Shown here: in pieces, positions 35,498 to 62,498 of the stretch | Layout: every line of letters begins with the position of its first letter | Numbering within the stretch: the first letter of the stretch is position 1 | Assembly: GCF_010993745.1 (NCBI RefSeq) | Contig: NZ_WOTN01000003.1 | Coordinates: forward strand, 1,426,001-1,490,000 | Source: Fodinicola acaciae | GTDB lineage: Bacteria; Actinomycetota; Actinomycetes; Mycobacteriales; HKI-0501 | Direction of reading: 5' to 3' | DNA length: 64,000 nt | Made by a program: the position numbers and the translations under genes | The notes under the pieces: generated by a model | Database searches by the model: none | Told to the model about the DNA's origin: nothing | What the model saw: the letters and a program-made list of their open reading frames with translations, nothing else

Positions 35498-36509
35498 GGG
35501 CGTGTTTCCAAACCCTCGGCGCTGTTTTCGGGCATGCTGGGGTGATGGTGTTTAGGCAGGAGATTTCGGACGAGTCGTGGGCTTTGTTGGAGCCGTTTTT
35601 TCCGAAGTGGAAGGGGAATGGTCGGCCGATCTCGGATATGCGGCGGGTGGTGGAGGGGATCGCGTGGCGGTTTCGGACCGGGGCGCCGTGGCGGGATATG
35701 CCGGAGCGTTTCGGGCACTGGAACACGATTTATGGCTGGTTCTGGGACTGGTCGAAAGACGGTACCTGGGATCGAGTGCTGCAGGAGGTGCGGAAACAGG
35801 CCGCCAGCGCTGGTGACCTGGAGTGGGTGGTGTCGGTGGACGGGTCGATCGTGCGTGTCCATCAGCACGGCGCAACCCTCGCGCGCGACACGAGTGACGC
35901 AGGTGACCACACAGGGGGCTCTACAGGGGGCTCTACAGGGGGCTCTACAGGGGGCTCTGTCGAATTACAAGAAAACCCGCGACCCCGGACCAGGTGAACC
36001 GGCCGGTCACGGAATCGGTAAGTCCAGGGGTGGCCTGACGACGAAGTTCCACGTCGCGGCCGACCTCAAGCAGCGACCGTTGGGGCTGGTGGTCACCGGC
36101 GGACACGCCGCGGACTCCACGTTCATGCACGTGGTACTGGAGACCATCAGCATCTCCAATGGCCGGCCCGGCCGGCCGCGGACCAGGCCGGACCGGGTGA
36201 TCGCCGACAAGGCGTACACCGGCAAGCCGTGCCGCGACTACCTGGCCCGGCGCGGCATCAAAGCCACCATCCCCGAACGTGGGGACCAAAAACGTGGTCG
36301 CGCCAACCGCGGGTCCGCCGGCGGCCGACCTCGCACTTTCGATCCAGAAATCTACAAAGGCCGCAACGTCGTGGAACGCTGCAACAACAAACTCAAACAA
36401 TGGCGCGGCATCGCCATGAGAACAGACAAAACCGCACGCAGCTACCTCGCCGGACTCACCCTCGCCGCCACGCTCATCTGGACCAAATCACTAGTTTAGA
36501 AACACGGCC
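35498..36509 (+). mobile_element. IS5-family (IS427-like group) insertion sequence
   Basis: Terminal inverted repeats GGGCGTGTTTCCAAAC (35498) and GTTTAGAAACACGGCC (ending 36509) match at 14 of 16 positions, and the element is flanked by TA on both sides (35496-35497 and 36510-36511), a 2-bp target duplication. About 1012 bp with one transposase gene in two frames. Inserted between the RHH promoter region and the cobalamin-binding protein gene. Confidence 0.88.
35545..36499 (+). CDS. IS5-family DDE transposase in two overlapping frames
   Basis: Frame one (35545-35997) encodes the N-terminal HTH-like part (FRQEISDESWALLEPFFPKW, WRFRTGAPWRDMPERFG) and the first catalytic Asp in VVSVDGSIVRVHQHG. 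Frame two carries SRGGLTTKFHVAADLKQRPL, the second Asp in RVIADKAYTGKP and the catalytic Glu in VVERCNNKLKQWRGIAMR, up to 36499. The frames meet near four copies of a 12-bp unit (GGGGGCTCTACA, 35914-35961) and a CAAGAAAACCC sequence. Either programmed frameshifting or an inactivating shift; the rest of the element is intact. Confidence 0.85.
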
Positions 36510-44588: not shown

Positions 44589-45287
44589 ATGGAAGAACTG
44601 CCAACTAATACTATTCATCGCCTGCGCGACCAGATGCCCTCGATGCTGGACATCCTGCCGCGGGGCCTTACGACGGCCGAAGCGCGGCTAGTGGCTGAGC
44701 GCCAAGCCAGCCTGCTGCTGCGGCTGCTCGATGTGCGCCAGCCGTGCGCCGACATCGAACGGCTGCTGGAGCTGCCAGAGCTGGAGGTCGAGTTCCTGCC
44801 GGGCATCCCCGAGTCGGGCACGTCGGCGTGGCGCCGAGACCACTGGCATATCCGCCTGAACTCGGACGACGACCTGTGGCGCTCGCGCGTGACGCTGGCG
44901 CACGAGTTCAAGCACATCCTCGACGACCCGTTCCGGGAGCAGCTGTATCCGGGCTGGACGTACGACAGCGACGGCAAGGCCCCGCGGCAAGCCGAGGAGA
45001 TCTCGGACTACTTCGCGGGCTGTGTGCTGGTACCGAAGCGCTGGCTGGTGAATGTCTGGTACGCCGGCGTACATGACGTGCCGACGCTAGCGGCTACTTT
45101 CGACGTGTCCGAAAGTCTAATTTTGACGCGGCTGGAGCAAACCGGCATCGAGGAAAAGGCACAGCCGGAGCACGAGCGGCATCCGCGACGGCCGTATACG
45201 CGCGCTGCTCTTCCTCGACTGGGTAGGCGCCTGGAGAGCCAACCAGCGCGACGACACGCTCTTGAACTGACTGGAGAGCGCGGATGA
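44589..45287 (+). CDS. ImmA/IrrE-family metallopeptidase
   Basis: 232 residues. The zinc motif HEFKH (His105, Glu106, His109) with the downstream acidic ligand region PRQAEEISDYFAGCVLVP identifies the ImmA/IrrE family. It follows the XRE gene by 68 bases. Expected role: anti-repressor protease acting on the XRE protein. The basic, Pro/Arg-rich tail is longer than usual. The last 4 bases overlap the next gene (ATGA). Confidence 0.9.
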   Translation: MEELPTNTIHRLRDQMPSMLDILPRGLTTAEARLVAERQASLLLRLLDVRQPCADIERLLELPELEVEFLPGIPESGTSAWRRDHWHIRLNSDDDLWRSRVTLAHEFKHILDDPFREQLYPGWTYDSDGKAPRQAEEISDYFAGCVLVPKRWLVNVWYAGVHDVPTLAATFDVSESLILTRLEQTGIEEKAQPEHERHPRRPYTRAALPRLGRRLESQPARRHALELTGERG

Positions 45288-45556
45288 GCGATACCTTTGC
45301 GTCTCAACCCGAGCGCTACCTTATCGACCCGGCGGACGAGCCGGTCCTGCTAACCATTCCCGAAGCCATGGCCATCCTGGCAGTAAACCGCTGGGGGCTG
45401 CAGCGGCTCATATGGGATCGGCAACTGGCCACGGTGAAGATTGGCGGCCGGCGACTGGTCCCCGAGGAAGCAGTTAGCGCTGTGTTAGAACGACGACTGG
45501 TCGACATCGGGCCGGTGGATGACGTAGCACCGGAGCCGGCGAACAGCGCAACGTAA
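45284..45556 (+). CDS. Excisionase-like HTH protein 1
   Basis: 90 residues. VLLTIPEAMAILAVNRWGLQRLIWDRQLATVKIGGRRLVPEEAV is the HTH_17/MerR-like excisionase fold, which binds att-site DNA. ATGA overlap with the ImmA-like gene; 15 bases before the second excisionase-like gene. Confidence 0.75.
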   Translation: MSDTFASQPERYLIDPADEPVLLTIPEAMAILAVNRWGLQRLIWDRQLATVKIGGRRLVPEEAVSAVLERRLVDIGPVDDVAPEPANSAT

Positions 45557-45571
45557 ACGGAGAAGTCATGT

Positions 45572-45829
45572 ATGGAATCCAGCAAACAGAATAATCATTT
45601 AGAACCTGTTCTCAAGCTCAGAAGGATCGCCTCCTCTCGGCTGCGCGTGGACCGGATGCTGCTGACTGTCGCTGAGACAGCGGAACTTTTACGAGTCAGC
45701 AAGGCGACGGTCTTTGTCACTATTCGGTCGGGACGGCTCAAGAGCGTCAAGATTGGCGCACGACGACTCGTGCCGTTGGACGCTGTCCGCGCGTTCCTCG
45801 ACGAGCTGAGCCAGGAGGAAAACCTCTGA
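45572..45829 (+). CDS. Excisionase-like HTH protein 2
   Basis: 85 residues. MLLTVAETAELLRVSKATVFVTIRSGRLKSVKIGARRLVPLDAVRAFLDEL is a clear excisionase HTH_17 domain. Stop and integrase start share one base (TGATG). Probably the directionality factor of the integrase. Confidence 0.85.
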   Translation: MESSKQNNHLEPVLKLRRIASSRLRVDRMLLTVAETAELLRVSKATVFVTIRSGRLKSVKIGARRLVPLDAVRAFLDELSQEENL

Positions 45830-47379
45830 TGGCTCGGCGTGCTCGTGGCGAAGGTACGGTCTACCAGCGCAAGGACGGTCATGGTCGGTTTGAGGCGGCC
45901 TTCTACGTCCCAACTCTCAACGGAAAACGCAAGCGGCAGCGTGTCTATGGGAAAACACGCCAAGAGGCGCAAGAGAAGCGTATTGAAATGCTGGCGAAGG
46001 TCGGGAAGGGTATCCAGCTACCCGATAAGGATTGGAAACTGTCGGCGTTTCTGGACCATTGGCTGGAGTATGCCGTCAAGCCCAAATGGCGTCCAGCCAC
46101 ATACGTGCGCCACGAGTCGATAGTCCGCGTGCATTTGAAGCCTGGTCTTGGCACATATCGCTTGTCACGGCTGTCCGTGCTCGCGGTGCAGGACTACCTC
46201 GATCGACAATTGGCATCCGGACAGTCAAAGGCATCAGTTCATCAAATGCGCAAGGTTCTTGGTGCCGCGCTCACGTGGGCGCAGCGGAAGGAGTTCCTGT
46301 TCCGTAATGTGGCGCGTCTCGCGGAGCCGCCGGGCTATCAGGCCGCTGAAGCGAAGTACTGGACGCTTGACGAGGCGCGGCGCTTCCTTGCGGCAATACC
46401 CGGACATCGCCTGTACGCTGCCTTTCTGCTGATCGTCCTGTACGGCCTGCGTGAAGGCGAAACGCTCGGCCTGCGATGGGTGGACGTAGACTTTTCGGAA
46501 GGCGTACTGCACATCCGTCAACAGTTGCAGCAGATTAACAACGAACTGGTGCAGTGCGAGCTGAAAACCAAGGCGTCAAGACGTGACGAGGCGCTAGTTG
46601 GGCTGGCGGCCGATGCGCTCGCCGCTCGCCGCGCAGCCATGATTGCAAACGGAGAGTCAATCGAGGGGCTGGTCTTTACTGGCGCGACTGGCAAGCCGCT
46701 TTGGCCGCGGAACTTCATGCGTTGCTTCCGGCGAATCTGCGCCAACGAAGGTCTACGACCAATCAAGATTCACGAGCTGCGCCATACGAACGCGACGCTC
46801 TTGAAGAAGCTGGGCGTGCCTGATCGTGACATCCAAGCAATTCTTGGTCATTCAGACCCGGCGACGACCAGGCGTCTGTATCAGCATGTCGATGAGACCG
46901 ATAAAAATGCGGCCCTGGCGAAGCTTGAGGAGCTGTTCATCCCAGCTCCGGCCCCTGTAGCTTGCCGTCAAGAACTGCCGTCAAAATGGCAATCTGTTGT
47001 AGGATTTACGAAAAATACTTTGGTGGCTCCTCCCAGACTCGAACTGGGGACACAAGGCTCTTCAGGCGTCGGCCGAACTGCTGCGCTAAGACGCCACGAT
47101 TTCAGGAACCAGTCTGATTTTACTAAATCTTATCTGTTAAATCAATGTGCTCCGAAGTTTGGGGAGCGAGTGCGCGAAGTGAGTTGGCACACGAACTTGG
47201 CTAGAACGCAGTGGTTGTTAGGGGTTGTTGCCGTCATCAACTGCCGTCAGGAGCCGGTCAGAGAACTGGTTGAGTGTCCATGCTGCGGGCGAGATATCGC
47301 CACTCATCCAGCCAAGCTCCGAACAACTTCACCAGCGAAATACGTCTGCTCGCCTAACAAGATGGACAGCGCCGCATGA
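45829..47379 (+). CDS. Tyrosine-type site-specific integrase
   Basis: 516 residues. N-terminal AP2-like arm-binding part (GEGTVYQRKDGHGRFEAAFY), core-binding SAM-like domain (about residues 65-150) and catalytic domain with Arg208 (YGLREGETLGLRW), HELRH at 315-319, LGHSDPATT and Tyr351 (TRRLYQHVDE). The usual end is near residue 380; the frame then reads through a tRNA-like sequence (VAPPRLELGTQGS) and continues ~110 codons to 47379, so the extra tail is probably non-functional. Confidence 0.93.
   Translation: MARRARGEGTVYQRKDGHGRFEAAFYVPTLNGKRKRQRVYGKTRQEAQEKRIEMLAKVGKGIQLPDKDWKLSAFLDHWLEYAVKPKWRPATYVRHESIVRVHLKPGLGTYRLSRLSVLAVQDYLDRQLASGQSKASVHQMRKVLGAALTWAQRKEFLFRNVARLAEPPGYQAAEAKYWTLDEARRFLAAIPGHRLYAAFLLIVLYGLREGETLGLRWVDVDFSEGVLHIRQQLQQINNELVQCELKTKASRRDEALVGLAADALAARRAAMIANGESIEGLVFTGATGKPLWPRNFMRCFRRICANEGLRPIKIHELRHTNATLLKKLGVPDRDIQAILGHSDPATTRRLYQHVDETDKNAALAKLEELFIPAPAPVACRQELPSKWQSVVGFTKNTLVAPPRLELGTQGSSGVGRTAALRRHDFRNQSDFTKSYLLNQCAPKFGERVREVSWHTNLARTQWLLGVVAVINCRQEPVRELVECPCCGRDIATHPAKLRTTSPAKYVCSPNKMDSAA
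47021..47098 (-). other. tRNA-like sequence inside integrase end; probable attachment site
   Basis: On the minus strand the 3' half is a good tRNA end: T-arm CCCAGTTCGAGTCTGGG, acceptor AGGAGCC, then ACCA. The 5' half (GGCGTCTTAGCGCAGCAG) pairs poorly in the acceptor, D and anticodon stems, so it is not an intact tRNA gene. A 3' tRNA end beside an integrase is the expected att core after integration. Confidence 0.6.
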
Positions 47380-47860: not shown

Positions 47861-49597
47861 ATGGAACAACTCCCTACTCCCTACGAGGAGGAGGAACCCT
47901 CCCGTAACCCCTTCACCGGCTACGACCCGCACCTCGAACCGCCGTCCTTTGATGACCCCTACGACAGCCACATCCGCGAAGGCGTCATGTCCGCGGAAGC
48001 CGAACGCCGCCTCATCGACGACACCACAGCCGCCGTTATCGCCTTCAGTTACCACGGCGGCGTGGACTCGGCCTTCCTCCAGCTGGCCCGTACGGGCGAG
48101 CTCGACCCCGAGCGCCTGACCGCCGAAATCGCTGCCGCCAATGCCGAAGACATCGACTACGAAGGCGCCATGGACGCCTTAGCGGCATACTGCGCCGACC
48201 GCGCTTCCCGAGGTGCCATCGCTGCCATTCCCGACTGGGCCGACCGCGCCAGCCAAGAGCTCACCCGCCGCCACGCCGTCTGGGATGCCGCCGAAGTTGA
48301 GCGCCACCGCGACTGGCTCATCTCAGATGGCCTCTCCGCTGCCGAGGCCGAAGGCCGCGACATCGACCACCTCACGGCCCGCGAGATTGCCCGCCGCCTC
48401 CGTCCCTCTGGTATGGGGCCATTGGCGGAACTAGCCGGCTCTGGCGCCATCGAGGCGCATGGCGTCGTGGCGGAATTAGATGACATGGTCAACGCCGACA
48501 GCGGCTACGACCAGGAAATCCTGGCGCTCGGTTCGTACGTCAACAGTCGGCAGGAAGCCGGCGAGACCGCCGACATTCCCGGCTGGAACGAGCTAGGCGA
48601 GGACCACACCCACCGGCGTCGTGGCGTACATGCCGCTGGTTCTTCTGCGGATGCTGCGGCCGTGCGGACTCCCGAAGCTCCCACCGCGGAGCTTGACACC
48701 TTCTCGTGGGCTGACGCGGCTACCTGGCACGTCGACGACGAGCAGACCAGCGACCTGGACGAAGCAGCAGCCTACGCCGCGCGGTTGCGAGCCCTGTTCG
48801 AGCTTGCTAGCCAGGCGGACGCCGAACTCAGCAATCGCGCAGAGACAAACAAAATCTGGGTGGGCCGCTGCCCGTACGGCAACGATCGGCCCGGCGGCAT
48901 GGTCATGCTGCGCACACCCTACGGGGATGTCCGGATCTTTGAGACCGACTCCAGCGAGCGGCTGGCAGAGGAGTGGGAGCAGCTGGAACGGGAGCATGCG
49001 GCGTACGAGTCGGCCACGGCCGGGGCGACGGGTCGCGGGTCTGGGAGCGCTCGGCTGGACCCAGAGATATGGGTCGGTGGGCTGGCGGACTACAACGCGG
49101 GTCGGCTGCATGGTGCCTGGATGGATGCCACGCTCAGCGCGGAAGACTTGACTGACGCGGCGCGGTTCATGTTGCGCGGCAGTCACCAGCTGGGCGCCGA
49201 GGAAGCCGCGGTCTTCGACTACAGCGACTTTGGCGAACTGGGCCTGGCGGATGACCTGGGCGAGCATCCCAGCTTCGCCACGATTTCCAAGCTGGCTAGC
49301 GGCCTACGCGAGCACGGCGAGGCGTATGCGGCGTACGTGGCCGTCGTCGGCCTGCACAACCTCAACGACCTGGACACCTTCCGCGACGCTTACGAAGGCG
49401 CGTACGACACTGCGGAGGCTTGGGCCGAGGCCCACGTCGCTGCCATGGACGACAGCAACTTCCAGCAGCACGTTCCGGACTGGCTGGCGGAGCATGTGCA
49501 CATTGACTACGAGGGGCTAGCGGATGACCTGAGCAGCACCTACGAAACGGTTGCCCGGCCGGGAGGAGGCATCTATGTCTTCCGCACGGATGTCTAA
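47861..49597 (+). CDS. ardA: Antirestriction protein ArdA with long N-terminal extension
   Basis: 578 residues. From about residue 404 the ArdA fold is clear: IWVGGLADYNAGRLHGAWMD, EEAAVFDYSDFGELGLADDL, FATISKLASGLREHGEAYAA, LADDLSSTYETVARPGGGIY. ArdA mimics DNA and blocks type I restriction enzymes, helping a mobile element to enter a host. The N-terminal ~300 residues are acidic and Ala/Glu/Asp-rich with ArdA-like helical pieces (DTFRDAYEG-type repeats absent), roughly three times the normal ArdA length. The end overlaps the methyltransferase start by 23 bases. Confidence 0.85.
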   Translation: MEQLPTPYEEEEPSRNPFTGYDPHLEPPSFDDPYDSHIREGVMSAEAERRLIDDTTAAVIAFSYHGGVDSAFLQLARTGELDPERLTAEIAAANAEDIDYEGAMDALAAYCADRASRGAIAAIPDWADRASQELTRRHAVWDAAEVERHRDWLISDGLSAAEAEGRDIDHLTAREIARRLRPSGMGPLAELAGSGAIEAHGVVAELDDMVNADSGYDQEILALGSYVNSRQEAGETADIPGWNELGEDHTHRRRGVHAAGSSADAAAVRTPEAPTAELDTFSWADAATWHVDDEQTSDLDEAAAYAARLRALFELASQADAELSNRAETNKIWVGRCPYGNDRPGGMVMLRTPYGDVRIFETDSSERLAEEWEQLEREHAAYESATAGATGRGSGSARLDPEIWVGGLADYNAGRLHGAWMDATLSAEDLTDAARFMLRGSHQLGAEEAAVFDYSDFGELGLADDLGEHPSFATISKLASGLREHGEAYAAYVAVVGLHNLNDLDTFRDAYEGAYDTAEAWAEAHVAAMDDSNFQQHVPDWLAEHVHIDYEGLADDLSSTYETVARPGGGIYVFRTDV

Positions 49598-50645
49598 TCC
49601 CGCCGGCCGCGTCGACGAGCTGCCACGCCACACAGTGCTGGTTGGCGACGCACGGGCCGAGCTGTTCCGGTTGCCGGATGCCTCCGTGGACATAGTCTTG
49701 ACCAGTCCGCCGTATTTTCGGCTGCGGGACTACCAAATTGAAGGACAGTTCGGGCTGGAGCCGGATGTCGGGACGTGGGTTGGCATGCTGCGGAAGGTCA
49801 TGGCGGAAGTGGCGCGGGTGCTGGTGCCGACGGGCACGCTCTGGCTGAATCTCGGTGACAGCTACAGCTTGCATGACAAGCAAGGCGCGCCACCGAAGAG
49901 TCTGCTGCTGGCGCCGGAACGGTTGGCCGCGGCGTTGGTGGCAGATGGCTGGACGCTGCGCAACAAGGTCATCTGGAGCAAGACGAATCCCATGCCGAGC
50001 CCGGTACGCGACCGACTGAGTACGACGCACGAGTTTGTGTACGTGTTTGCGCGGCAAAAGCGGTATTTCTTTGACCTGGACGCCATCCGGCAGCCGCATG
50101 TCAGTGTGGTACGGCCACCGCGGTCGACGGCCCAGCCGGGTGTCGACAGCGTGCCGGCGAGTTGGCGCGGGCCGAACAGCGACGGCGGTTCCGGGCTGGC
50201 CAAGCTCCAGGCCGCCGGCGTGGTCGGGCATCCGCTAGGTAAGAACCCCGGCGACGTGTGGCGGTTGCCCACGGTGGGCTTCAAGGGACAGCACTTTGCC
50301 ACGTTCTCGCCGAAGCTCGTGGAGCGAGCCATCCTGGCGGGGTGTCCGGAAGCGCGGTGCGTACGGTGCAGGTTGCCGTGGCGGCGGTTGGCGATTCGGC
50401 AAGCTGGCCAGCCGGCGCGGCGCGGGAAGCTGCTGCCGACGTGCGGGTGCGGTGCCGGCGTGGGAAGCGAGCTGGGCCTGGTGCTTGACCCATTCCTGGG
50501 CAGTGGCACCACCGGCGTCGTGGCGGAACGGCTGAAGCGGGACTGGCTCGGTGTCGAGCTGCATCCGGCATACGCGGAGATCGCTGAGGAGCGGATCGCA
50601 GCAGCACGCGGACAACCAAGGGGTGGTATGGCCGCGGCGGCGTAA
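49575..50645 (+). CDS. Site-specific DNA methyltransferase (beta class, N4-cytosine or N6-adenine)
   Basis: 356 residues from ATG 49575, with GGAGGAGG upstream. Motif IV TSPPYFRLRDY (residues 43-53) precedes the SAM motif DPFLGSGTT (305-313), the beta-class order. TSPPY favours N4-cytosine or N6-adenine. An inserted Cys cluster, CPEARCVRCRLPW...TCGCGAG, lies between them and may bind zinc. No restriction enzyme gene adjoins, so a solitary modification enzyme that protects the element, together with ArdA, is likely. Confidence 0.9.
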   Translation: MSSARMSNPAGRVDELPRHTVLVGDARAELFRLPDASVDIVLTSPPYFRLRDYQIEGQFGLEPDVGTWVGMLRKVMAEVARVLVPTGTLWLNLGDSYSLHDKQGAPPKSLLLAPERLAAALVADGWTLRNKVIWSKTNPMPSPVRDRLSTTHEFVYVFARQKRYFFDLDAIRQPHVSVVRPPRSTAQPGVDSVPASWRGPNSDGGSGLAKLQAAGVVGHPLGKNPGDVWRLPTVGFKGQHFATFSPKLVERAILAGCPEARCVRCRLPWRRLAIRQAGQPARRGKLLPTCGCGAGVGSELGLVLDPFLGSGTTGVVAERLKRDWLGVELHPAYAEIAEERIAAARGQPRGGMAAAA

Positions 50646-51395: not shown

Positions 51396-51869
51396 ATGGG
51401 CACACCAGAAAAATATCAAGGTTTACCTAGATCCACCGACTCGGCCAAAGAGTACTTGGCCGCTGAGATAGATGACTTCATCAACAGCGAGTTCATCTGT
51501 TGCGCTCCGAGAGCATCTTCAATGTCGCATCCCGATGAGCATTCTGGCGTTACTCCCGCGCCAAGCCCTGTCGAACTCGCTCGGGCGATATGTGAACGTC
51601 TTATACAGAGTAATGACGAACGATGTCAGGTTCGTTCTATCGATATTCTTGGCCGATTGGCAATTTCCGACCCTTCCGCAGGTTTGGCTGTTTGGCGCGA
51701 TCTTCTTGCGGTAGGCAACAATGCCGTGCGTCGGGCGGCTACTACAGTGCTTGATCACACGCTAGACGACCTGTCCCCATCAATGGCGTCATCATTCAAA
51801 CGAGTGTGGTGGCAGACCGAGCGGCGCTGCTGCCAGGCTGCCTGGTGCGATCACGCCAGATGGTACTAG
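51396..51869 (+). CDS. Hypothetical protein with HEAT-like C-terminal helices, convergent with the RADAR-like operon
   Basis: 157 residues from ATG 51396, with a TTAGGAGG ribosome site. The C-terminal part (LIQSNDERCQVRSIDILGRL, AVWRDLLAVGNNAVRRAATT, VLDHTLDDLSPSM) looks like two alpha-helical HEAT-type repeats. The lower GC content matches the neighbouring defence operon, with which it overlaps tail to tail by 4 bases. No family recognised. Confidence 0.6.
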   Translation: MGTPEKYQGLPRSTDSAKEYLAAEIDDFINSEFICCAPRASSMSHPDEHSGVTPAPSPVELARAICERLIQSNDERCQVRSIDILGRLAISDPSAGLAVWRDLLAVGNNAVRRAATTVLDHTLDDLSPSMASSFKRVWWQTERRCCQAAWCDHARWY

Positions 51870-54409
51870 AAGGTTCGTCTTACTGTGTCAAGGAGTCCAA
51901 AATAATAGGCAGCATTTTCGCCGGCTGGCGCCATGCCCTTAGCGGTCTCGGACAATCCTCTCTGTATCAACTCGCGAATCTCATCGAGGTCGAATCTGTA
52001 GGTTCCGAACAACGCAATAAATTCCTCCTCAATCAACGAAACAAATATTCCCGGGTCGTCGGTATTCACCGTGCAGTGCAGTCCCTCATCGAGGAACTTC
52101 TTGAGTGGGTGCTCCCAGAAACTACCGTATCCGCCCAGGGCTAGATTTGAAGATGGGCATGACTCAACAATGATTGGGCGCCCATCATCGCCCCCGGCAA
52201 TTAGGTCTCGCACCACGTGAGGGCGAAGTTGTTCGTATAGTTCGTCCGAGAGACGGTCGATCTCTGAAGCGCCGAAGTTCATCTCCTCTCGATCCGCATA
52301 TGAGATCTGGTGGACCCGTCCACCTTCCCGCCACGTATAGCTGCACTCGAATGTTGCCGCGGCAAGCAGGGTGTCGCTTAGCGTCGAGTGGTCCAAAGGA
52401 ATCTGTCGCTCGATGGCGGGATGCCATCGGATAGGGTAATCAAGGCTAGGTGCTTGCAGGCTGTTTACGCCGACTCTAGCGAGTGCCCCCATTGAGAACC
52501 GGCTGTCGTACCAGTCGACCAAGATTGTCTGTGGAACTGCCATTCCGAACACAAATTCGCTAGCCTGACCGAGCCAATGACGAAGACTTGTCGAGGCGCT
52601 CTTCGTGAGCATGATTTGTTTTCTTGACGCGAAACTTGCCGCCCAACAAAGGTCGTTCAGTACGTCACCGCCTCGATAAGAATATCTCTCGCCACCGCTG
52701 TGTTTACGACTCCGGTCAAGTGCTAAGCAGTGGCCGATTCGAGTTACAGGAACGCCGAAGGTCGTCGCCTCCGATATCCGCCGCAAACCTTGTAGCTGGC
52801 TGCCAAAGTATTCGCCTGCATGAACGGCATAGCTAAGAGGCGCCAGGTTCGGCAGATGCCCTCTTACCAGAGTATCTAAGTATTGGTAGGCGATTGCGAA
52901 GACCCAGTTAGGCGTCTCCTGCTCCGGCCCGGTCACGTCGACGCTTCCTATGAATCGACGCAGCGTCGGCTCCCGTCGCAGAACTTGAGCGATACCCTGC
53001 GAAAGCGCTAGCGCGCTCAATAGTTGAGTCTTATGTCGAACGCCCTGCGAGGTTGTAGCAGGTTCGTTCACTGTCGGTTGCGTTCGGTCATAGCCAATCG
53101 GCATCTGTACCGAAACAGTGGGAGTGTTCCCCTCTTCGCGCATGTACGCAGAGATGCCCCGTAGGTGCTCTGTAACGTCGTCAATGATTTCAGCTTCAGC
53201 GGGACGTGTAGGGCTCGGGGTCGGCATCTTGATCGTCTTTCGCAACTCTACGGCTGTAAGAAGCGTATTAGTACTAAGGTGATCAAGCGCTTTGGCTACC
53301 CTCAAGACGCCCGGCAGCTCCCAGTCACTCGACGGTCTGTTGCTTGATAGATGAATTTTTCGAAAGTCGCGTTGTAGCTTGAAGCGCGATGAAAATGTAG
53401 CCAGATTACTTGAAAGCGGGGAAGTCATCGAGCTGTGTAAAATACAGATGGCTGTCGCCACACCTCTGAGTAGGGTTGTGGTCGCCTGATCCGATACTTT
53501 ACCGGGATCCTCAATTGCTTTCCGGAGTGCAAGTTTTAAATTAGCAAAATGGGGTTCGAAGTCTGCGATTTGCAGCCTGCTAAGCCCCTCCCAGTACGGC
53601 CGCAGCCTCCCGACCGTAATCATCTCGGGATTGCGTACGAGTTGCGCCGTCTTTACCCAGAGCTTCCCTTGTATCGCCCAGTTCCCAGGCGGGCCGCCGT
53701 AACGTCGTGCGTTCTCACGCCAGTCGATGGCATAGCGACTCAACAGCGCTGCGACCCAGCTCAACGCTAAGACGAGTGGATAGAGGTGGCGAGTTGTCCA
53801 CTCAGCAGCGTCGTGACCGCCGAGGTCGGGAATCCGGAGTGTTGTATCAGATTTATCTGACTCGCGGGGAGTTGTTGCGTTTCCCAATGCGGCTGGTATG
53901 TGCCCTGCAATGTTTGCAAATACGAGGTCGAGCATGGTGCACAGCGGTGTAGCACCGCCGGAATGAACGTGTGCATCGGCAACGCCGGACGTAAACACCT
54001 GCTTGACCTCCTCCCGCGCGAAGCTCCTAAGGAGGTCTGCGCGAGATTGGCGCGTCACAAGCTCGATTATTTCATAAGGCATAATTCTGCGAAGGCTCCG
54101 TAAAGGATCCAAGCTGCTGCGGGCCTTGTCATTGGGATCGATGTAGTCACGAACGCTCAGAACAGCGAACTTCAGCAGCTGTATCCATGCAGGCCCGGGA
54201 CGCATCTCGCCCGCCAACGTCGTAAGTCTCTCAGTGACAGTTGCAGCGTTGACGCCATGTGCACCTGCGAGGGCATCGGCAAGTTCGGCGAACCAGTCAG
54301 CTTGTAGGTCGCCGACGATGTTTAGTGATTCGGTAATACAGAACGCATGCTTGGTAACATTTAAGACGAAGTCAACCTGTGCGCCGTTGCTGAAGCCAGT
54401 TGTGGTCAT
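51866..54409 (-). CDS. rdrB: RdrB-like adenosine deaminase of a RADAR-type defence system
   Basis: 847 residues, far larger than housekeeping adenosine deaminase (~350). All catalytic features of the deaminase fold are present: His147 and His149 in ADAHVHSGG, HAGE (His530-Glu533), RIGHCLAL (His560), SSNLALGG (754-761) and the zinc Asp in VNTDDPGIF (Asp784-Asp785). Large insertions between these motifs (about residues 160-520) match the RdrB type, which forms a shell and deaminates ATP/dATP or RNA adenosines on phage infection. ATGA overlap with the upstream ATPase gene. GC content is clearly lower than the chromosome. Confidence 0.8.
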   Translation of the reverse strand: MTTTGFSNGAQVDFVLNVTKHAFCITESLNIVGDLQADWFAELADALAGAHGVNAATVTERLTTLAGEMRPGPAWIQLLKFAVLSVRDYIDPNDKARSSLDPLRSLRRIMPYEIIELVTRQSRADLLRSFAREEVKQVFTSGVADAHVHSGGATPLCTMLDLVFANIAGHIPAALGNATTPRESDKSDTTLRIPDLGGHDAAEWTTRHLYPLVLALSWVAALLSRYAIDWRENARRYGGPPGNWAIQGKLWVKTAQLVRNPEMITVGRLRPYWEGLSRLQIADFEPHFANLKLALRKAIEDPGKVSDQATTTLLRGVATAICILHSSMTSPLSSNLATFSSRFKLQRDFRKIHLSSNRPSSDWELPGVLRVAKALDHLSTNTLLTAVELRKTIKMPTPSPTRPAEAEIIDDVTEHLRGISAYMREEGNTPTVSVQMPIGYDRTQPTVNEPATTSQGVRHKTQLLSALALSQGIAQVLRREPTLRRFIGSVDVTGPEQETPNWVFAIAYQYLDTLVRGHLPNLAPLSYAVHAGEYFGSQLQGLRRISEATTFGVPVTRIGHCLALDRSRKHSGGERYSYRGGDVLNDLCWAASFASRKQIMLTKSASTSLRHWLGQASEFVFGMAVPQTILVDWYDSRFSMGALARVGVNSLQAPSLDYPIRWHPAIERQIPLDHSTLSDTLLAAATFECSYTWREGGRVHQISYADREEMNFGASEIDRLSDELYEQLRPHVVRDLIAGGDDGRPIIVESCPSSNLALGGYGSFWEHPLKKFLDEGLHCTVNTDDPGIFVSLIEEEFIALFGTYRFDLDEIRELIQRGLSETAKGMAPAGENAAYYFGLLDTVRRTF

Positions 54410-56718
54410 GGCTTTGGCTCTGCCTTCGCGTCAGCTTCCAGTTCACGTAACGCCACAATTGCCGCCGAGTGTAGGGCGTCCTGGTCAGGTGACATATCCG
54501 TTGCTGTACTTACCGAGCTCTCGCCAATGCGTACGGCCAGGGCGCGTTGACGCTCGGCCTGTGCCGCTCGGTGCAGGCGCTCTATGTCATAAGCAACTGA
54601 TTCGTCGAAGAACTTCGTCAACTCAATAAACGGAACGATCCAGGATGCCTGGGTCGACTTTCGCAGCCGTTCGGACATGCGCGCAGCAAGGCGCGAATTG
54701 GCGATAGGTCCTCGTCCGAATTGGTCGACCATCCTCTGCCGAGACTTCAGTAGCTTCTCAGTAAACCAGCGTGGGCAGATAGCGGGATGACAAATGAAGA
54801 GAAGGTACACTTCCACCCAGAAGACGAAGTCCCTGGCGCGCTCTTCGTTCCGTTCTAGCTCGTTCCTGTACAGATGCTCGATACTCCGCCACACGGATTC
54901 GAAGTTTGCTTCAAGTGCACCTGCGTTCGCGCAGCTACGCACGATGTCGCCGAGAGATGACGGTAATGTCCGCTCGCGTTGGATGTGCGCATGTATTCTC
55001 CACCACTCCAGTGTCGCGGCGGCAATTATACTCTTATGGTCTGTTGCCGAAGTCCGGGCTATTCGAACCGCCTGATGTACTTCTGCCCATGCCTTTGATA
55101 CGAGAAAGTAGTCGTAATGGCCCTCCCATGCCGGATGCAAAAGCAGGAGGTTGTCGACTCGCTCCATGCCGAGACTCACACGGACAGCGTTAGAGCCGTT
55201 CATCCCGCCCTTGCTAGGAAGGCCACCAATACTTTCTTCGTCCACGAGTCGTTGGGAATAGCTGAACTCGCGAGCGAGGAGGAGCGAGTTCGTAGCTGCG
55301 ACGTCGATGCGCGCGGACATGCGCTCTCCGCCACGTCTCTCACTGAGCGTTCCGACGGTTTCGCTAAGTAATCCGAGTGCAATCTCGGAACCAGAGGGTA
55401 GGCTGCGGGTAGGTAGGGTAAGAGTCTCGGAAGGGCGATGCAGGGCAAGTCCAATCTTTTCAAAGTCGATACGTAAGGTATTGGTGCCGAAAGAAGGATC
55501 AAAGGTCATCAAATCCGATGCTCGTATAGATACCGGCGAATTGCGGAGACCAAATTGGAGCCCATGCTCCAGTATGGCACGCACTGCAAGCCGCGCGCCT
55601 AGGTCTGCTCTCTCCGCCCTGGCCTTCTGAAGCTGAAAATGCAGACTTTCTAAGTCTCTCGGATTAGACGAGAGGCAGCGTGCGTATGGGGACGGTTGGT
55701 CCTTGTCGCCGAGTGTAAATAGCTCTGCTAGTGTTGTTGCAGGTGCGCCTCCGGCTGGCAGTGAAAACCTGGCCAGCAAGTCCAGGAGCGGTTCACTGGA
55801 CGGCGTGTTTAGAGGGAAGTATGCGAGCCGTTCTCGCAAGGAGAGCTCGCGGATGGTGATCCGGCGCTGTGGCGGTATCGCTTTGGCCAGCTGGCTTTCG
55901 ATTATTCCATTCAACCGTTGCTGAAGTTCCATTTGGTACGCGGCATCGCTGCCCAGGTGTGGATAGGCTCGAAGATAGTGTTCACCCAAGGCGAATCTAG
56001 CCTCATCTATATCAATACATACGAGGCAGATAACGCCAGGGGCGGAGGTAAGTATCCGCAAGTCAACGAGTATTCTCGGTAGAAGTTCTGGCGTTAAGTC
56101 GGCATCGTCGATTGGTACAATCAAGATGCCTTGTCCATCGCCAATTTCTCTGAATACACGGCCAGCGAGTTCCGACCATTGATCGATGAACGCAGCGCCT
56201 GCTGACGCAGAGCGGACGAAGTCGTCCGCAATATTGTCTAGCGACTGCGCAAGAGGACGGTCGTATCCTAACTCCCGTGCCCCAACAATACTGGCTCTGC
56301 GGAAAAGTCTGTAAAGTGCCGTTGATATTGTTGTGTCATCGTCGATGGCGTGTGTAAGTAAGCCTTCGTATTTCTGGCCGAGTGTTCGCTCAAGGCTAGC
56401 GAGGGCCATGCCTAAGACTGAGTCGTTCGCCGAGAAGAACTCCGGTCGTATAACCGAGAGAACGATGTCCTTCCTGGTCTGGAGTTGGGAACAGATGCTG
56501 TGCAGAACGGTGGTCTTTCCGGCGCCTCGCCGCCCAGTGATGGCGATGACCGACTCACTTCTCCTATCAAGCATCGTTGTGGAGAAGTCACGACGATTGT
56601 GCCACGCCGCCAGTTCTTTTCGTGATCGGGCAATGGTGGCAAGAACCTGCGCGACGTGTCCTGCGTGCGGTTCCGGCAGTGGCATCATCTGATGGGGATT
56701 GGACATCTTGAGCGTCAC
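54406..56718 (-). CDS. rdrA: RdrA-like P-loop ATPase of a RADAR-type defence system
   Basis: 770 residues from GTG 56718 (GTGA overlap with the upstream gene; ATG 56706 is an alternative). Walker A GRRGAGKTT (Lys68) and Walker B ILIVPIDDADL (Asp204, Asp205, Asp207) in an AAA+/STAND-type nucleotide-binding domain; sensor-like CLVCIDIDEARFALG follows. The C-terminal ~400 residues are helical and without a known motif. Known RdrA assembles as a ring and delivers substrate or signals to RdrB. The gene order ATPase then deaminase, with 4-bp overlap, supports the assignment; sequence identity to known RdrA was not tested. Confidence 0.75.
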   Translation of the reverse strand: MTLKMSNPHQMMPLPEPHAGHVAQVLATIARSRKELAAWHNRRDFSTTMLDRRSESVIAITGRRGAGKTTVLHSICSQLQTRKDIVLSVIRPEFFSANDSVLGMALASLERTLGQKYEGLLTHAIDDDTTISTALYRLFRRASIVGARELGYDRPLAQSLDNIADDFVRSASAGAAFIDQWSELAGRVFREIGDGQGILIVPIDDADLTPELLPRILVDLRILTSAPGVICLVCIDIDEARFALGEHYLRAYPHLGSDAAYQMELQQRLNGIIESQLAKAIPPQRRITIRELSLRERLAYFPLNTPSSEPLLDLLARFSLPAGGAPATTLAELFTLGDKDQPSPYARCLSSNPRDLESLHFQLQKARAERADLGARLAVRAILEHGLQFGLRNSPVSIRASDLMTFDPSFGTNTLRIDFEKIGLALHRPSETLTLPTRSLPSGSEIALGLLSETVGTLSERRGGERMSARIDVAATNSLLLAREFSYSQRLVDEESIGGLPSKGGMNGSNAVRVSLGMERVDNLLLLHPAWEGHYDYFLVSKAWAEVHQAVRIARTSATDHKSIIAAATLEWWRIHAHIQRERTLPSSLGDIVRSCANAGALEANFESVWRSIEHLYRNELERNEERARDFVFWVEVYLLFICHPAICPRWFTEKLLKSRQRMVDQFGRGPIANSRLAARMSERLRKSTQASWIVPFIELTKFFDESVAYDIERLHRAAQAERQRALAVRIGESSVSTATDMSPDQDALHSAAIVALRELEADAKAEPKP

Positions 56719-57089
56719 TTCCTACTGGTTTTGCTAGATTCACTAGGAGGGCCGTCGTGGTCGGCAATTATCGCCGGTATACGTTGTTGCATGTATTTCT
56801 TCATATGTTGAAACTCTTGAGACACGATTATTTCGTGTTCTGGCACTACGCCAGCGAGCCAGGTAGCTCCTTCTTCTTGGTTGTTATTCGGTGAGGCGTC
56901 CTCCTCGTCGAGATGCGTAATAGCAGAAAACTCGTGGACCTGGTCGTCGCTCATTAGTCGGTAGATTCGACTGCCAACTCGTAGTTCGAGCACGTCGTTG
57001 AAACGCTCCAGTACTTCCCGTTTCTGGCGTGCTTCCAAGCGTGAGAGACCGAGTTCAATCAAGAGATTGTTGTCAAGCGTAATTTTCAT
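56715..57089 (-). CDS. Small DUF5663-like protein, first gene of the RADAR-like operon
   Basis: 124 residues from ATG 57089, with AAAGGGGG upstream. Residues 1-65, MKITLDNNLLIELGLSRLEA, RQKREVLERFNDVLELRVGS, MSDDQVHEFSAIT, show the pattern of DUF5663-like small helical proteins ('LGLs.L....E.L...N..LE.RVG..I...MSDeq..EF'). The C-terminal part (VVPEHEIIVSQEFQHMKKYM) has a helix and a polar tail. Overlaps rdrA by 4 bp. No membrane segment, unlike the SLATT or Csx27 accessories reported with RADAR. Possible regulator or adaptor. Confidence 0.65.
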   Translation of the reverse strand: MKITLDNNLLIELGLSRLEARQKREVLERFNDVLELRVGSRIYRLMSDDQVHEFSAITHLDEEDASPNNNQEEGATWLAGVVPEHEIIVSQEFQHMKKYMQQRIPAIIADHDGPPSESSKTSRK

Positions 57090-57286
57090 ACTCGACCCCC
57101 TTTTGTCACGTTTCGATCTAACGTCGCCGCGCGGTGTCGGCTATCGAACCTGAGTCGTCCCCAGGGCCGTTGTGATGTCGATACCTCAATGGCCGGCTTT
57201 CTCAGATCGTCCTCGTGCGTCGGTGGGGTCATGTGCCTTTTGCCTAAAGATTCGAGGAATCGGGACCGATTGGATGATGAAGGCAC
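57086..57286 (-). CDS. Possible small protein upstream of the RADAR-like operon
   Basis: 66 codons from GTG 57286 (or 48 from ATG 57232, preceded by AAAAGG). NRSRFLESLGKRHMTPPTHE, DDLRKPAIEVSTSQRPWGRL. The stop overlaps the next ATG by ATGA, which is the reason to list it. No family and a poor ribosome site for the longer start. Confidence 0.3.
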   Translation of the reverse strand: MPSSSNRSRFLESLGKRHMTPPTHEDDLRKPAIEVSTSQRPWGRLRFDSRHRAATLDRNVTKGGRV

Positions 57287-61530: not shown

Positions 61531-61790
61531 GCCGCGTGCAGATTTGTGAGCGGCACGAGGTGGTGACGCCGAGCCGCATTGACGCGGTGCCGGTCGTCGA
61601 AGGCCATGTCGAGCTATTGGGTGGCTGCTGTGGTGATTGCGGCCAGACGGTTATGGCCTTGGACGTCGGCCACGGCGTACGCCAGTGGCACACCGTGTCA
61701 TCGGTGGTGACGCGGCTACGGCGGTATGAGCGACAGCGCGTGGCGGAGCAGCTGCTCGGTACGTCGTTGCAGGCGGGGATGCCGGCGTGA
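61527..61790 (+). CDS. Small Cys-rich protein (paralogue family 1, member 3)
   Basis: 87 residues: VQICERHEVVTPSRIDAVPV, VEGHVELLGGCCGDCGQTVM. GHVELLGGCCGDCG aligns with DVHVELIGARCQCCG of member 1. C-terminal basic helix. GTGA overlap with the next gene. Confidence 0.6.
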   Translation: MSRVQICERHEVVTPSRIDAVPVVEGHVELLGGCCGDCGQTVMALDVGHGVRQWHTVSSVVTRLRRYERQRVAEQLLGTSLQAGMPA

Positions 61791-62170
61791 TCGCCCCTCG
61801 TCGCCGAACGGTCGTCCCGTTCTGGCACCGGCGTCGGTTCCGCGACCGCGTCGGGGCTGCTGAGCGCTACCTCGTGCATTCAGACGAGCTAGAAGCGGTC
61901 GTCGTGGCCAAGGCCGCGGTCATTAACCGCGTCGGACAGCGCGACGGCAACTGGCTGGCGTTATCTCGTGAACTGAGCGGGCTTCTGAAACGCGAAGCCA
62001 GAATTTGCCAACGCTTGAGCCGATTCCGGGCGGATGAAGGCGACCTGTGCGCGGCCTTTCTGGCAGACGCCTGGGCCGGCCACCTGCGAACAGTGAACGC
62101 GCAGCAATACGTCGAGCAGACCTGGCTGGACTTGGCAGAGGATTCGCTTGGTGGTGGCCAGCGTGACTGA
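61787..62170 (+). CDS. Helical small protein (paralogue family 2, member 1)
   Basis: 127 residues: LSGLLKREARICQRLSRFRA, DAWAGHLRTVNAQQYVEQTW. A predicted all-helical protein. KREARICQxL...AGHLRxxxAQxYVExxW recurs in the genes at 62163 and 62789. 8-base overlap with the next start. Confidence 0.6.
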   Translation: MIAPRRRTVVPFWHRRRFRDRVGAAERYLVHSDELEAVVVAKAAVINRVGQRDGNWLALSRELSGLLKREARICQRLSRFRADEGDLCAAFLADAWAGHLRTVNAQQYVEQTWLDLAEDSLGGGQRD

Positions 62171-62498
62171 GCGCAAGTCGTCCACCTTGGCGCGACGCGT
62201 CTACGCCGCACTGTCCAACCAGCTCCTGGATGTCCTTGACGACAAGGACGCCGTACGCGCTCGCGTCGGCGAAGGCATCAGCCTGCCGACCTTGGCCGCC
62301 CAACTGCACCAGCTGGTGCAGCGTGAAGCCAAGATCTGCCAACAACTCGGTGAACTACGGGCTCGCGACGACGATGTCCCGGCCGCGTACGTGCACTGGA
62401 GCTGGGCGGCACACCTGCGGCAGTTCGATGCCCAGCGGTACGTCGAGCAGCTGTGGCTGGCGCAGTACGAAACCGACGCTTTGGACGAACCGTCGTGA
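62163..62498 (+). CDS. Helical small protein (paralogue family 2, member 2)
   Basis: 111 residues from GTG 62163 (GTGACTGA overlap with the previous stop; the frame opens 5 codons earlier). LVQREAKICQQLGELRARDD, SWAAHLRQFDAQRYVEQLWL: the closest paralogue of member 1. Role unknown. Confidence 0.6.
   Translation: MTERKSSTLARRVYAALSNQLLDVLDDKDAVRARVGEGISLPTLAAQLHQLVQREAKICQQLGELRARDDDVPAAYVHWSWAAHLRQFDAQRYVEQLWLAQYETDALDEPS

What the first reader, a model, noticed from the sequence alone, without database searches (positions are those of the whole stretch)
51866..57089. RADAR-type adenosine-deaminase defence operon in an actinobacterial mobile region
Seen: a low-GC minus-strand operon with 4-bp overlaps encodes a P-loop ATPase (Walker A GRRGAGKTT, Walker B IVPIDDADL) and an 847-residue protein with HxH, HAGE, RIGH, SSN and NTDDP, i.e. 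a complete adenosine-deaminase active site with very large insertions. Known: this ATPase/deaminase pair is the architecture of RADAR (RdrA/RdrB). Inferred: a functional anti-phage system carried on an element. The housekeeping deaminase is less than half this size, so it is not nucleoside salvage.
Basis: partly seen in the sequence, partly recalled or inferred. Interest (0 to 1): 0.9.

Follow-up and report, generated by a model that had tools for sequence, protein, structure and literature searches.

The report
Three-gene RADAR-like deaminase defence operon
This bacterial operon encodes a very divergent relative of the RADAR anti-phage machine, which poisons the cell's ATP pool during infection, and it carries a conserved third gene, of a kind otherwise seen in or beside other immune-type proteins, that the other RADAR loci examined lack.

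Summary
Single-sequence tests are weak: RdrB 40.5 bits against a cut-off of 800, with ordinary adenosine deaminase scoring higher (58.5). Profile comparison and predicted folds decide it. The eight best PDB matches of the deaminase model are RdrB chains, the twenty best of the ATPase model RdrA chains. RdrB aligns over 620 residues, a plain deaminase over 309. Two other genomes, Geodermatophilus aquaeductus and a contig of uncertain host, carry the same DUF5663-ATPase-deaminase trio. The three form one lineage in both protein trees. No DUF5663 turned up in six frames of 89 other related loci. In the five other genomes found, DUF5663 lies inside NACHT-TPR or AAA-TPR proteins, or beside an ATPase or TPR gene. 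Best reading: a distinct RADAR-type lineage converting ATP/dATP to ITP/dITP on phage infection, with DUF5663 as a soluble sensing or gating adaptor for RdrA. Homology and architecture are shown; activity, defence and the DUF5663 role are inferred.

The parts
56715..57089 (-). gene 1: 124-aa soluble acidic DUF5663 protein (PF18908), conserved third component
   Evidence: Pfam 48.2 bits, E 1.6e-12, cut-off 23.7; pI 5.2; DUF5663 gene in the same place in L047 and L048
54406..56718 (-). gene 2: 770-aa RdrA-type AAA+ ATPase (GTG start)
   Evidence: Foldseek top 20 all RdrA; hhalign of the lineage to 18 other RdrAs score 196.5 over 310 columns
51866..54409 (-). gene 3: 847-aa RdrB-type adenosine-deaminase-fold protein
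   Evidence: Foldseek top 8 all RdrB; hhalign of the lineage to 18 other RdrBs score 320 over 448 columns; Pfam A_deaminase 56 bits
56512..56535 (-). Walker A GRRGAGKT (residues 62-69 of gene 2)
   Evidence: R64, G65, G67, K68 invariant in 49 of 49 rows
56098..56121 (-). Walker B IVPIDDAD (residues 200-207 of gene 2)
   Evidence: D204, D205, D207 invariant in 49 of 49 rows
53963..53971 (-). metal-binding HVH (residues 147-149 of gene 3)
52811..52822 (-). HAGE, metal His530 and catalytic Glu533
52730..52741 (-). RIGH, metal His560; start of the RIGHxLAL signature used to find relatives
52055..52060 (-). Asp784-Asp785 of NTDDP
57096..57104 (-). AAAAGGGGG, likely ribosome-binding site of gene 1
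   Evidence: read from the sequence
45829..47379 (+). context: tyrosine integrase
   Evidence: Pfam Phage_integrase 85.7 bits, Phage_int_SAM_3 37.1 bits
47861..50645 (+). context: 578-aa protein with C-terminal ArdA domain, then N6/N4 DNA methylase
   Evidence: PADLOC MTase_II 241.9 bits

Best explanation
A mobile three-gene defence operon of RADAR type. The 770-aa protein is an RdrA-type AAA+ ATPase and the 847-aa protein an RdrB-type deaminase that keeps the full zinc/Glu site and RdrB's three large insertions. By analogy with RADAR they form a large ATPase-deaminase assembly. On phage infection this would turn ATP and dATP into ITP and dITP and stop phage growth at the cell's expense. The small DUF5663 protein is a soluble third component; other variants carry a membrane accessory (SLATT or Csx27) instead. 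The proposal is that it binds the RdrA ATPase or its helical C-terminal lobe and helps to sense infection or to hold the deaminase off. Shown: gene order, intact active sites, homology of both large proteins to RdrA and RdrB, and the conserved trio in three genomes. Inferred: complex formation, substrate, defence, and the role of DUF5663.
For: Deaminase model (pLDDT 73.4, pTM 0.81): PDB ranks 1-8 all RdrB (E 5.2e-14 to 1.7e-11), next an ordinary ADA at 6.5e-6. RdrB 8fnv aligns Z 26.2 over 620 residues; ADA 3ou8 Z 25.7 over 309; no listed non-RdrB chain exceeds 385. ATPase model (pLDDT 69.4, pTM 0.58): ranks 1-20 all RdrA (E 2.7e-8 to 8.9e-6), next 8.8e-3; Z 21.8 against 13.0 for Cdc6/Orc1. Without folding, hhalign of the lineage to 18 other RdrBs scores 320 over 448 columns, to 8 ordinary ADAs 138 over 85; RdrA lineage to 18 others 196.5 over 310. 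Spacing: HxH at residue 147, then 383, 30 and 224 residues to HAGE, RIGH and DD. Same DUF5663-ATPase-deaminase order in L034/L048 and L047. Lineage monophyletic in the RdrB tree (fork 98/91) and RdrA tree (100/94). DUF5663 absent from six frames of 89 other related loci. In the other five genomes found, DUF5663 is inside NACHT-TPR or AAA-TPR proteins (3) or beside an ATPase or a TPR gene (2).
Against: Single-sequence tests prefer other deaminases to RdrB: NCBIfam ADA models in all three of the lineage (window 58.5 v 40.5, L034 70.1 v 55.5, L047 47.8 with no RdrB match at 1e-9); PADLOC CARF_ADA 38.2 v RdrB 30.9; PDB sequences, ADA 3.1e-9 v RdrB 0.0029. PADLOC ranks RdrA third for the ATPase, behind mad8 and PifA. 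Both fold models used alignments full of RdrA/RdrB relatives, so they are not independent. The superpositions are loose (query TM 0.52-0.56 for RdrB, 0.28-0.35 for RdrA). The ATPase C-terminal half is low-confidence. Only three loci carry the trio. The Geodermatophilus DUF5663 hit is 0.1 bit over the cut-off and shows no BLAST similarity to the window's. The RdrB tree places the lineage outside the 79 others; in the unrooted RdrA tree it groups with other RdrAs (nearest L099); long branches make both unsure. No functional data.
Confidence: 0.7

Rival explanations
1. A RADAR-type ATPase-deaminase pair that works as the published two-protein system does; the DUF5663 gene is a passenger or an expression or folding aid with no part in sensing.
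For: Published RADAR is described as a two-protein system (PMC9994260, sections and passages). The small protein is poorly conserved (21 and 29% identity to the window's) and only three loci carry it.
Against: The gene overlaps the ATPase start by 4 bp in the window and directly precedes the ATPase gene in 3 of 3 lineage members. DUF5663 is otherwise rare: 6 of 200, 3 of 296 and 1 of 306 genomes in overlapping draws, the window's own genome counted each time. In the other genomes it also keeps company with NTPases or TPR proteins.
Confidence: 0.2
2. An ATPase-deaminase machine with another substrate or purpose, for example a different adenine nucleotide, a signalling nucleotide or nucleic acid, so 'works like RADAR' is wrong although the proteins are homologous.
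For: The lineage lies on the ADA side of the RdrB tree and scores higher with ADA models than with RdrB. The HAGE-RIGH spacing is 30, where 21 of 21 other rows with a full motif set have 32 (two incomplete rows, L077 and L050, have 30 and 31). The RdrA sensor-1 Asp is kept in the window (D236) but, by the alignment, not in the two relatives.
Against: All catalytic residues and the RdrB-type insertions are kept. Cad1, another ADA-fold effector, also converts ATP to ITP (PMC11645235, title and start of abstract seen).
Confidence: 0.12
3. An enlarged housekeeping adenosine deaminase of purine salvage.
For: Pfam A_deaminase and TIGR01430 match.
Against: About 500 residues too long, 620 residues aligned to RdrB, co-operonic RdrA-type ATPase, low-GC island, and two ordinary ADA-type frames elsewhere in the genome.
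Confidence: 0.02

Closest known systems
RADAR (RdrA/RdrB), e.g. E. coli 8fnt/8fnv/8fnw and S. suis 8fnu
   Same: AAA+ ATPase gene directly upstream of an ADA-fold deaminase with the same His tetrad plus Glu, N-terminal extension, core-splitting insertion and insertion after the last His; same Walker A/B and sensor-2 Arg
   Different: A third gene (DUF5663); HAGE-RIGH spacing 30, not the usual 32; RdrB model score below all nine other divergent RdrBs tested and below the ADA models. The ATPase (770 aa) is shorter than the seven plasmid RdrAs (836-1027 aa, from coordinates), but not than some genome ones (700-800 aa), so length is no distinction
RADAR variants with a SLATT or Csx27 membrane accessory
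   Same: An extra small gene in the operon (SLATT gene beside RADAR in L038; PMC11676413 passage)
   Different: The small protein matches DUF5663 and otherwise only one sub-threshold Pfam model, is acidic, shows no membrane stretch by eye, and is encoded upstream, whereas SLATT in L038 is downstream
Cad1 (CARF-fused adenosine deaminase of type III CRISPR)
   Same: ADA-fold defence deaminase; PADLOC CARF_ADA matches residues 744-799
   Different: No CARF domain found, paired with an RdrA-type ATPase
NACHT/AAA-TPR proteins with an internal DUF5663 (L134, L135, L136)
   Same: The same small domain, together with an NTPase
   Different: There it is one domain of an 1175-2014 aa protein; here it is a separate gene beside an AAA+ ATPase gene

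Membership tests
RADAR | RdrA-type ATPase gene directly upstream of an RdrB-type deaminase gene | tested here: met
   an upstream ATPase-sized ORF was called in 67 of 80 related loci (the 13 others are listed, and several of them are short or cut contigs)
RADAR | RdrB zinc site: His tetrad and catalytic Glu (E. coli H152, H154, H498, H530, E501) | tested here: met
   H147, H149, H530, H560, E533, invariant in 54 of 54 rows; E. coli numbering from PMC9994260
RADAR | Three large insertions in the deaminase core | tested here: met
   spacings; 620 residues aligned to RdrB against 309 to ADA 3ou8 and at most 385 to any other listed non-RdrB chain
RADAR | RdrA AAA+ core: Walker A, Walker B, sensor 1, sensor 2 | tested here: met
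   K68/T69, D204/D205, D236, R354; the E. coli counterparts were located by reading the alignment (R377 falls in QPVRLL); fold match
RADAR | RdrA C-terminal helical lobe | tested here: inconclusive
   predicted helical but low pLDDT; the listed alignments to RdrA end by about residue 430
RADAR | Heptameric RdrA and dodecameric RdrB joined in a supramolecular complex | not testable with these tools
   no complex prediction on hand
RADAR | ATP/dATP to ITP/dITP on infection; phage defence | not testable with these tools
   needs the bench
NCBIfam equivalogs RdrB NF041744 and RdrA NF041743 | score above the curated cut-off | tested here: not met
   40.5 of 800 and 27.6 of 600 bits; nine other divergent RdrBs also fail the RdrB cut-off at 99-201 bits, so it marks a subfamily, not RADAR as a whole
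Ordinary adenosine deaminase (Add, TIGR01430) | about 330-360 aa single domain, score above cut-off 216.55 | tested here: not met
   847 aa, 58.5 bits, surplus residues follow RdrB
Cad1 (CARF-ADA) | N-terminal CARF domain | tested here: not met
   Pfam finds A_deaminase alone; the listed Cad1 chains align only from about residue 129 on, with their own deaminase part
DUF5663 (PF18908) | score above Pfam gathering cut-off 23.7 | tested here: met
   window 48.2 bits; Geodermatophilus 23.8 bits; a second member of A8 at E 4.9e-14, which I attribute to the L047 ORF read

The most novel reading that the evidence does not exclude
DUF5663 is an exchangeable sensing or adaptor module shared by unrelated NTP-driven immune machines: built into trypsin-NACHT-TPR and AAA-TPR proteins, and supplied as a separate subunit to an early-branching three-component RADAR lineage. 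If so, this lineage shows how a RADAR machine is told that a phage is present, and may keep a state closer to the ancestor that linked ordinary adenosine deaminases to RdrB.
Probability: 0.3. Interest if true: 0.7.

Novelty: new variant of a known kind. Interest (0 to 1): 0.55.

Why it matters
How RADAR detects phage is open; the authors of the E. coli structure suggest that the RdrA C-terminal domain may sense an unknown phage signal (PMC9994260, section 9). A lineage with a small, separable, conserved third subunit whose domain also occurs inside NACHT-TPR and AAA-TPR proteins makes that question directly testable by a gene deletion and a pull-down. It also shows that RADAR-type systems extend beyond what the curated RdrA/RdrB models catch: the window system fails both cut-offs, so routine annotation would probably show an adenosine-deaminase-domain protein and a hypothetical ATPase (inference).

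Tried and rejected
Ordinary salvage deaminase: rejected. Cad1: rejected. Close relatives by protein search: none in one genome-contig scan and one viral scan with the protein alone; among plasmids an Aliivibrio RdrB at 27.6% over 37% plus two short ADA-region matches; none in phages. Plasmid searches with the window ATPase or DUF5663 protein found nothing. An ATPase-alignment search of 394 genomes of the class found only the window's own (E up to 1e-8). Viral scans with alignments A1-A4 found nothing confirmed; A5 gave four loci that I did not analyse beyond the DUF5663 search. A phylum search matched 102 of 396 genomes, the window's own included; apart from the own locus and one broken match (G355) all listed matches lie in residues 704-839, so identity there is no sign of this system.

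Element ends: direct repeats of 18 bp or more around the integrase (20 of 23 families shown) gave no convincing att pair, and no tRNA was found in the window. The same-genus genome G413 (74% complete) shows no match to the operon stretch, only four short 66-77% matches elsewhere in the 16-kb query, which fits a mobile island but proves little. I dropped the idea that the third genome (L047) is actinobacterial: its record says Planococcus, its flanks have 66-70% GC, and a flank matches Rhodobacteraceae plasmids at about 70%; host undetermined. I dropped 'basal to all RADAR' as a claim, because the RdrA tree does not show it. In the RdrB tree I left out 5 of 88 deaminases by name and one without the HxGE motif, so 82 RdrB-type rows remained; of 11 loci tried for ADA rows only 3 gave a usable frame. 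In the RdrA tree 10 ATPase ORFs without RGxGK[ST] and 13 loci without a called ATPase were dropped. Only the best 80 of 147 confirmed loci were returned, so other trio carriers may exist among the 67 not seen. No paper in the library mentions DUF5663. RdrD and third-gene searches (20 of 270 and 8 of 211 rows listed) showed nothing on RADAR beyond one review. Most subscription papers are not held, and the original 2020 report of RADAR did not appear, so absence from print is not shown.
Full report
OBSERVATION. The interval holds three genes on the - strand: 124 aa (57089-56715), 770 aa (56718-54406) and 847 aa (54409-51866), joined by GTGA and ATGA overlaps. GC is 0.547 in the operon, against 0.57-0.75 in 2-kb windows away from it. 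An IrrE-type M78 peptidase, a tyrosine integrase, an ArdA-domain protein and a DNA methylase lie at 44.6-50.6 kb. This fits a mobile island, but no ends were found.

WHAT THE LARGE PROTEINS ARE. Single-sequence tests were ambiguous. NCBIfam gave the deaminase 58.5 bits with plain adenosine deaminase and 40.5 with RdrB (cut-off 800), and the ATPase 27.6 bits with RdrA (cut-off 600), its best model. PADLOC gave the deaminase 38.2 bits with CARF_ADA and 30.9 with RdrB, and the ATPase 19.2 with mad8, 17.7 with PifA and 13.2 with RdrA. By PDB sequence the deaminase's best match was an ordinary ADA (3.1e-9; RdrB 8fnv 0.0029) and the ATPase's was RdrA 8fnu at E 0.077. I therefore collected relatives: one other genome among 397 of the order (E up to 1e-12), seven RADAR pairs on plasmids, and the best 80 of 147 confirmed loci from the 84,980-species collection.

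With these the answer is clear. Comparing the three-member lineage (A12, A14) with 18 other RdrA or RdrB rows by hhalign gave 196.5 over 310 columns for the ATPase and 320 over 448 columns for the deaminase. Against eight ordinary ADAs the deaminase lineage gave 138 over 85 columns. Predicted folds agree. The deaminase model (pLDDT 73.4, pTM 0.81) has eight RdrB chains as its eight best PDB matches, E 5.2e-14 to 1.7e-11, then an ordinary ADA at 6.5e-6. In the second look RdrB aligns over 620 residues (Z 26.2), ADA 3ou8 over 309 (Z 25.7) and no other listed family over more than 385, so much of the surplus length is RdrB-like. The ATPase model (pLDDT 69.4, pTM 0.58) has 20 RdrA chains as its 20 best matches, then PCH-2 at 8.8e-3; Z is 21.8 for RdrA against 13.0 for the next family. 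The whole-chain superpositions are loose: query TM 0.52-0.56 for RdrB and 0.28-0.35 for RdrA. Both models were built on alignments of such relatives, so they are consistent with the profile result rather than independent of it.

ACTIVE SITES. His147, His149, His530, His560 and Glu533 correspond to E. coli RdrB H152, H154, H498, H530 and E501 (for the numbering) and are invariant in 54 of 54 rows. In the ATPase, Lys68, Asp204 and Asp205 and, from reading the alignment, Asp236 (sensor 1) and Arg354 (sensor 2, E. coli R377) are kept. Sensor 1 is not Asp in the two relatives. PMC9994260 (sections 8-10 read, passages of others) reports 22-25% identity among RdrA ATPase domains and 24-28% among RdrB C-terminal parts of working systems, so low identity alone does not exclude function.

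THE THIRD GENE. The first gene encodes a DUF5663 protein (48.2 bits, cut-off 23.7). Among 56 small ORFs upstream of the ATPase in 67 loci, two matched DUF5663: L048's and, by my reading, L047's. An HMM built from six DUF5663 sequences, run on six frames of 93 loci, found the window, L047 and L048 (all three used in building it) and the control L138 (not used), and nothing in the other 89: 7 plasmid, 4 viral and 78 genome loci, some of them cut contigs, and at least one viral locus (L043) matched only in the ADA-type tail. DUF5663 is rare: 6 of 200 genomes of the order, 3 of 296 of the class, 1 of 306 of the phylum, in overlapping draws that each include the window's own genome and give seven distinct genomes. 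Two of the seven are this system. In two it is inside a trypsin-NACHT-DUF5663-TPR protein (L134, L135) and in one inside an AAA-DUF5663-TPR protein (L136, where AAA_16 is under its cut-off and NPHP3_N over it). In one it is a separate gene that shares one base with an 805-aa TrwB/HerA-like ATPase gene (L133), and in one a separate gene overlapping that of a 1004-aa TPR protein (L138). Six of seven contexts thus join it to a P-loop NTPase, and the seventh to a TPR protein.

LINEAGE. The three deaminases form one group (fork 98/91) that falls on the ADA side of the 79 other RdrBs (99/83), with long branches flagged by the program. The three ATPases also form one group (100/94), but in that unrooted tree they group with other RdrAs, the nearest being L099. 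Nine other divergent RdrBs score 99-201 bits with the RdrB model as their best; the three of this lineage score higher with ADA models. It is a distinct lineage; whether it is the deepest one is open.

HOW IT PROBABLY WORKS. By homology: an RdrA-type ring docked on an RdrB-type shell, activated on infection, turning ATP and dATP into ITP and dITP. The DUF5663 protein is proposed as a soluble adaptor on the ATPase side, because its gene overlaps the ATPase gene here and because elsewhere the domain sits inside NTPase-TPR proteins between NTPase and repeats. All of this paragraph is inference. Known accessory genes of RADAR are SLATT or Csx27 membrane proteins (PMC11676413 passage; SLATT gene in L038); I found no mention of DUF5663 in the library.

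VERDICT. A new variant of a known kind.

Noticed in passing
L134:6600-12326, L135:5069-11113, L136:7109-10636: DUF5663 lies inside large NTPase-TPR proteins: trypsin-NACHT-DUF5663-TPR (1908 and 2014 aa) and AAA-DUF5663-TPR (1175 aa).
   Followed up: partly
L133:6197-8988: A stand-alone 124-aa DUF5663 gene abuts an 805-aa TrwB/HerA-like ATPase gene (shared base 8614; PADLOC mad8 59 bits); possibly an undescribed system.
   Followed up: no
L138:4541-7905: A stand-alone DUF5663 gene overlaps the end of a 1004-aa TPR protein gene.
   Followed up: no
L037:2688-10707: A Rhizobium leguminosarum plasmid carries an RdrA/RdrB pair followed by an adenylosuccinate synthetase gene, a purine enzyme next to an adenine deaminase system.
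   Followed up: no
window 47861-50645: The gene of a 578-aa protein with a C-terminal ArdA (antirestriction) domain overlaps an N6/N4 DNA methylase gene; no partner nuclease identified.
   Followed up: no
window 44589-47379: IrrE/M78 peptidase, two small ORFs and a tyrosine integrase in a row, probably the core of an integrated element.
   Followed up: partly
L047: The record is named Planococcus, but the flanks have 66-70% GC and one flank matches Rhodobacteraceae plasmids at about 70%, so the organism label looks wrong or the contig is mixed.
   Followed up: partly
window 35900-35959: Four overlapping 24-nt copies at 12-bp spacing.
   Followed up: no
window 61787-62498: Two adjacent ORFs share a 59-nt segment at 71% identity (62071 and 62402), perhaps a small gene duplication.
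   Followed up: no
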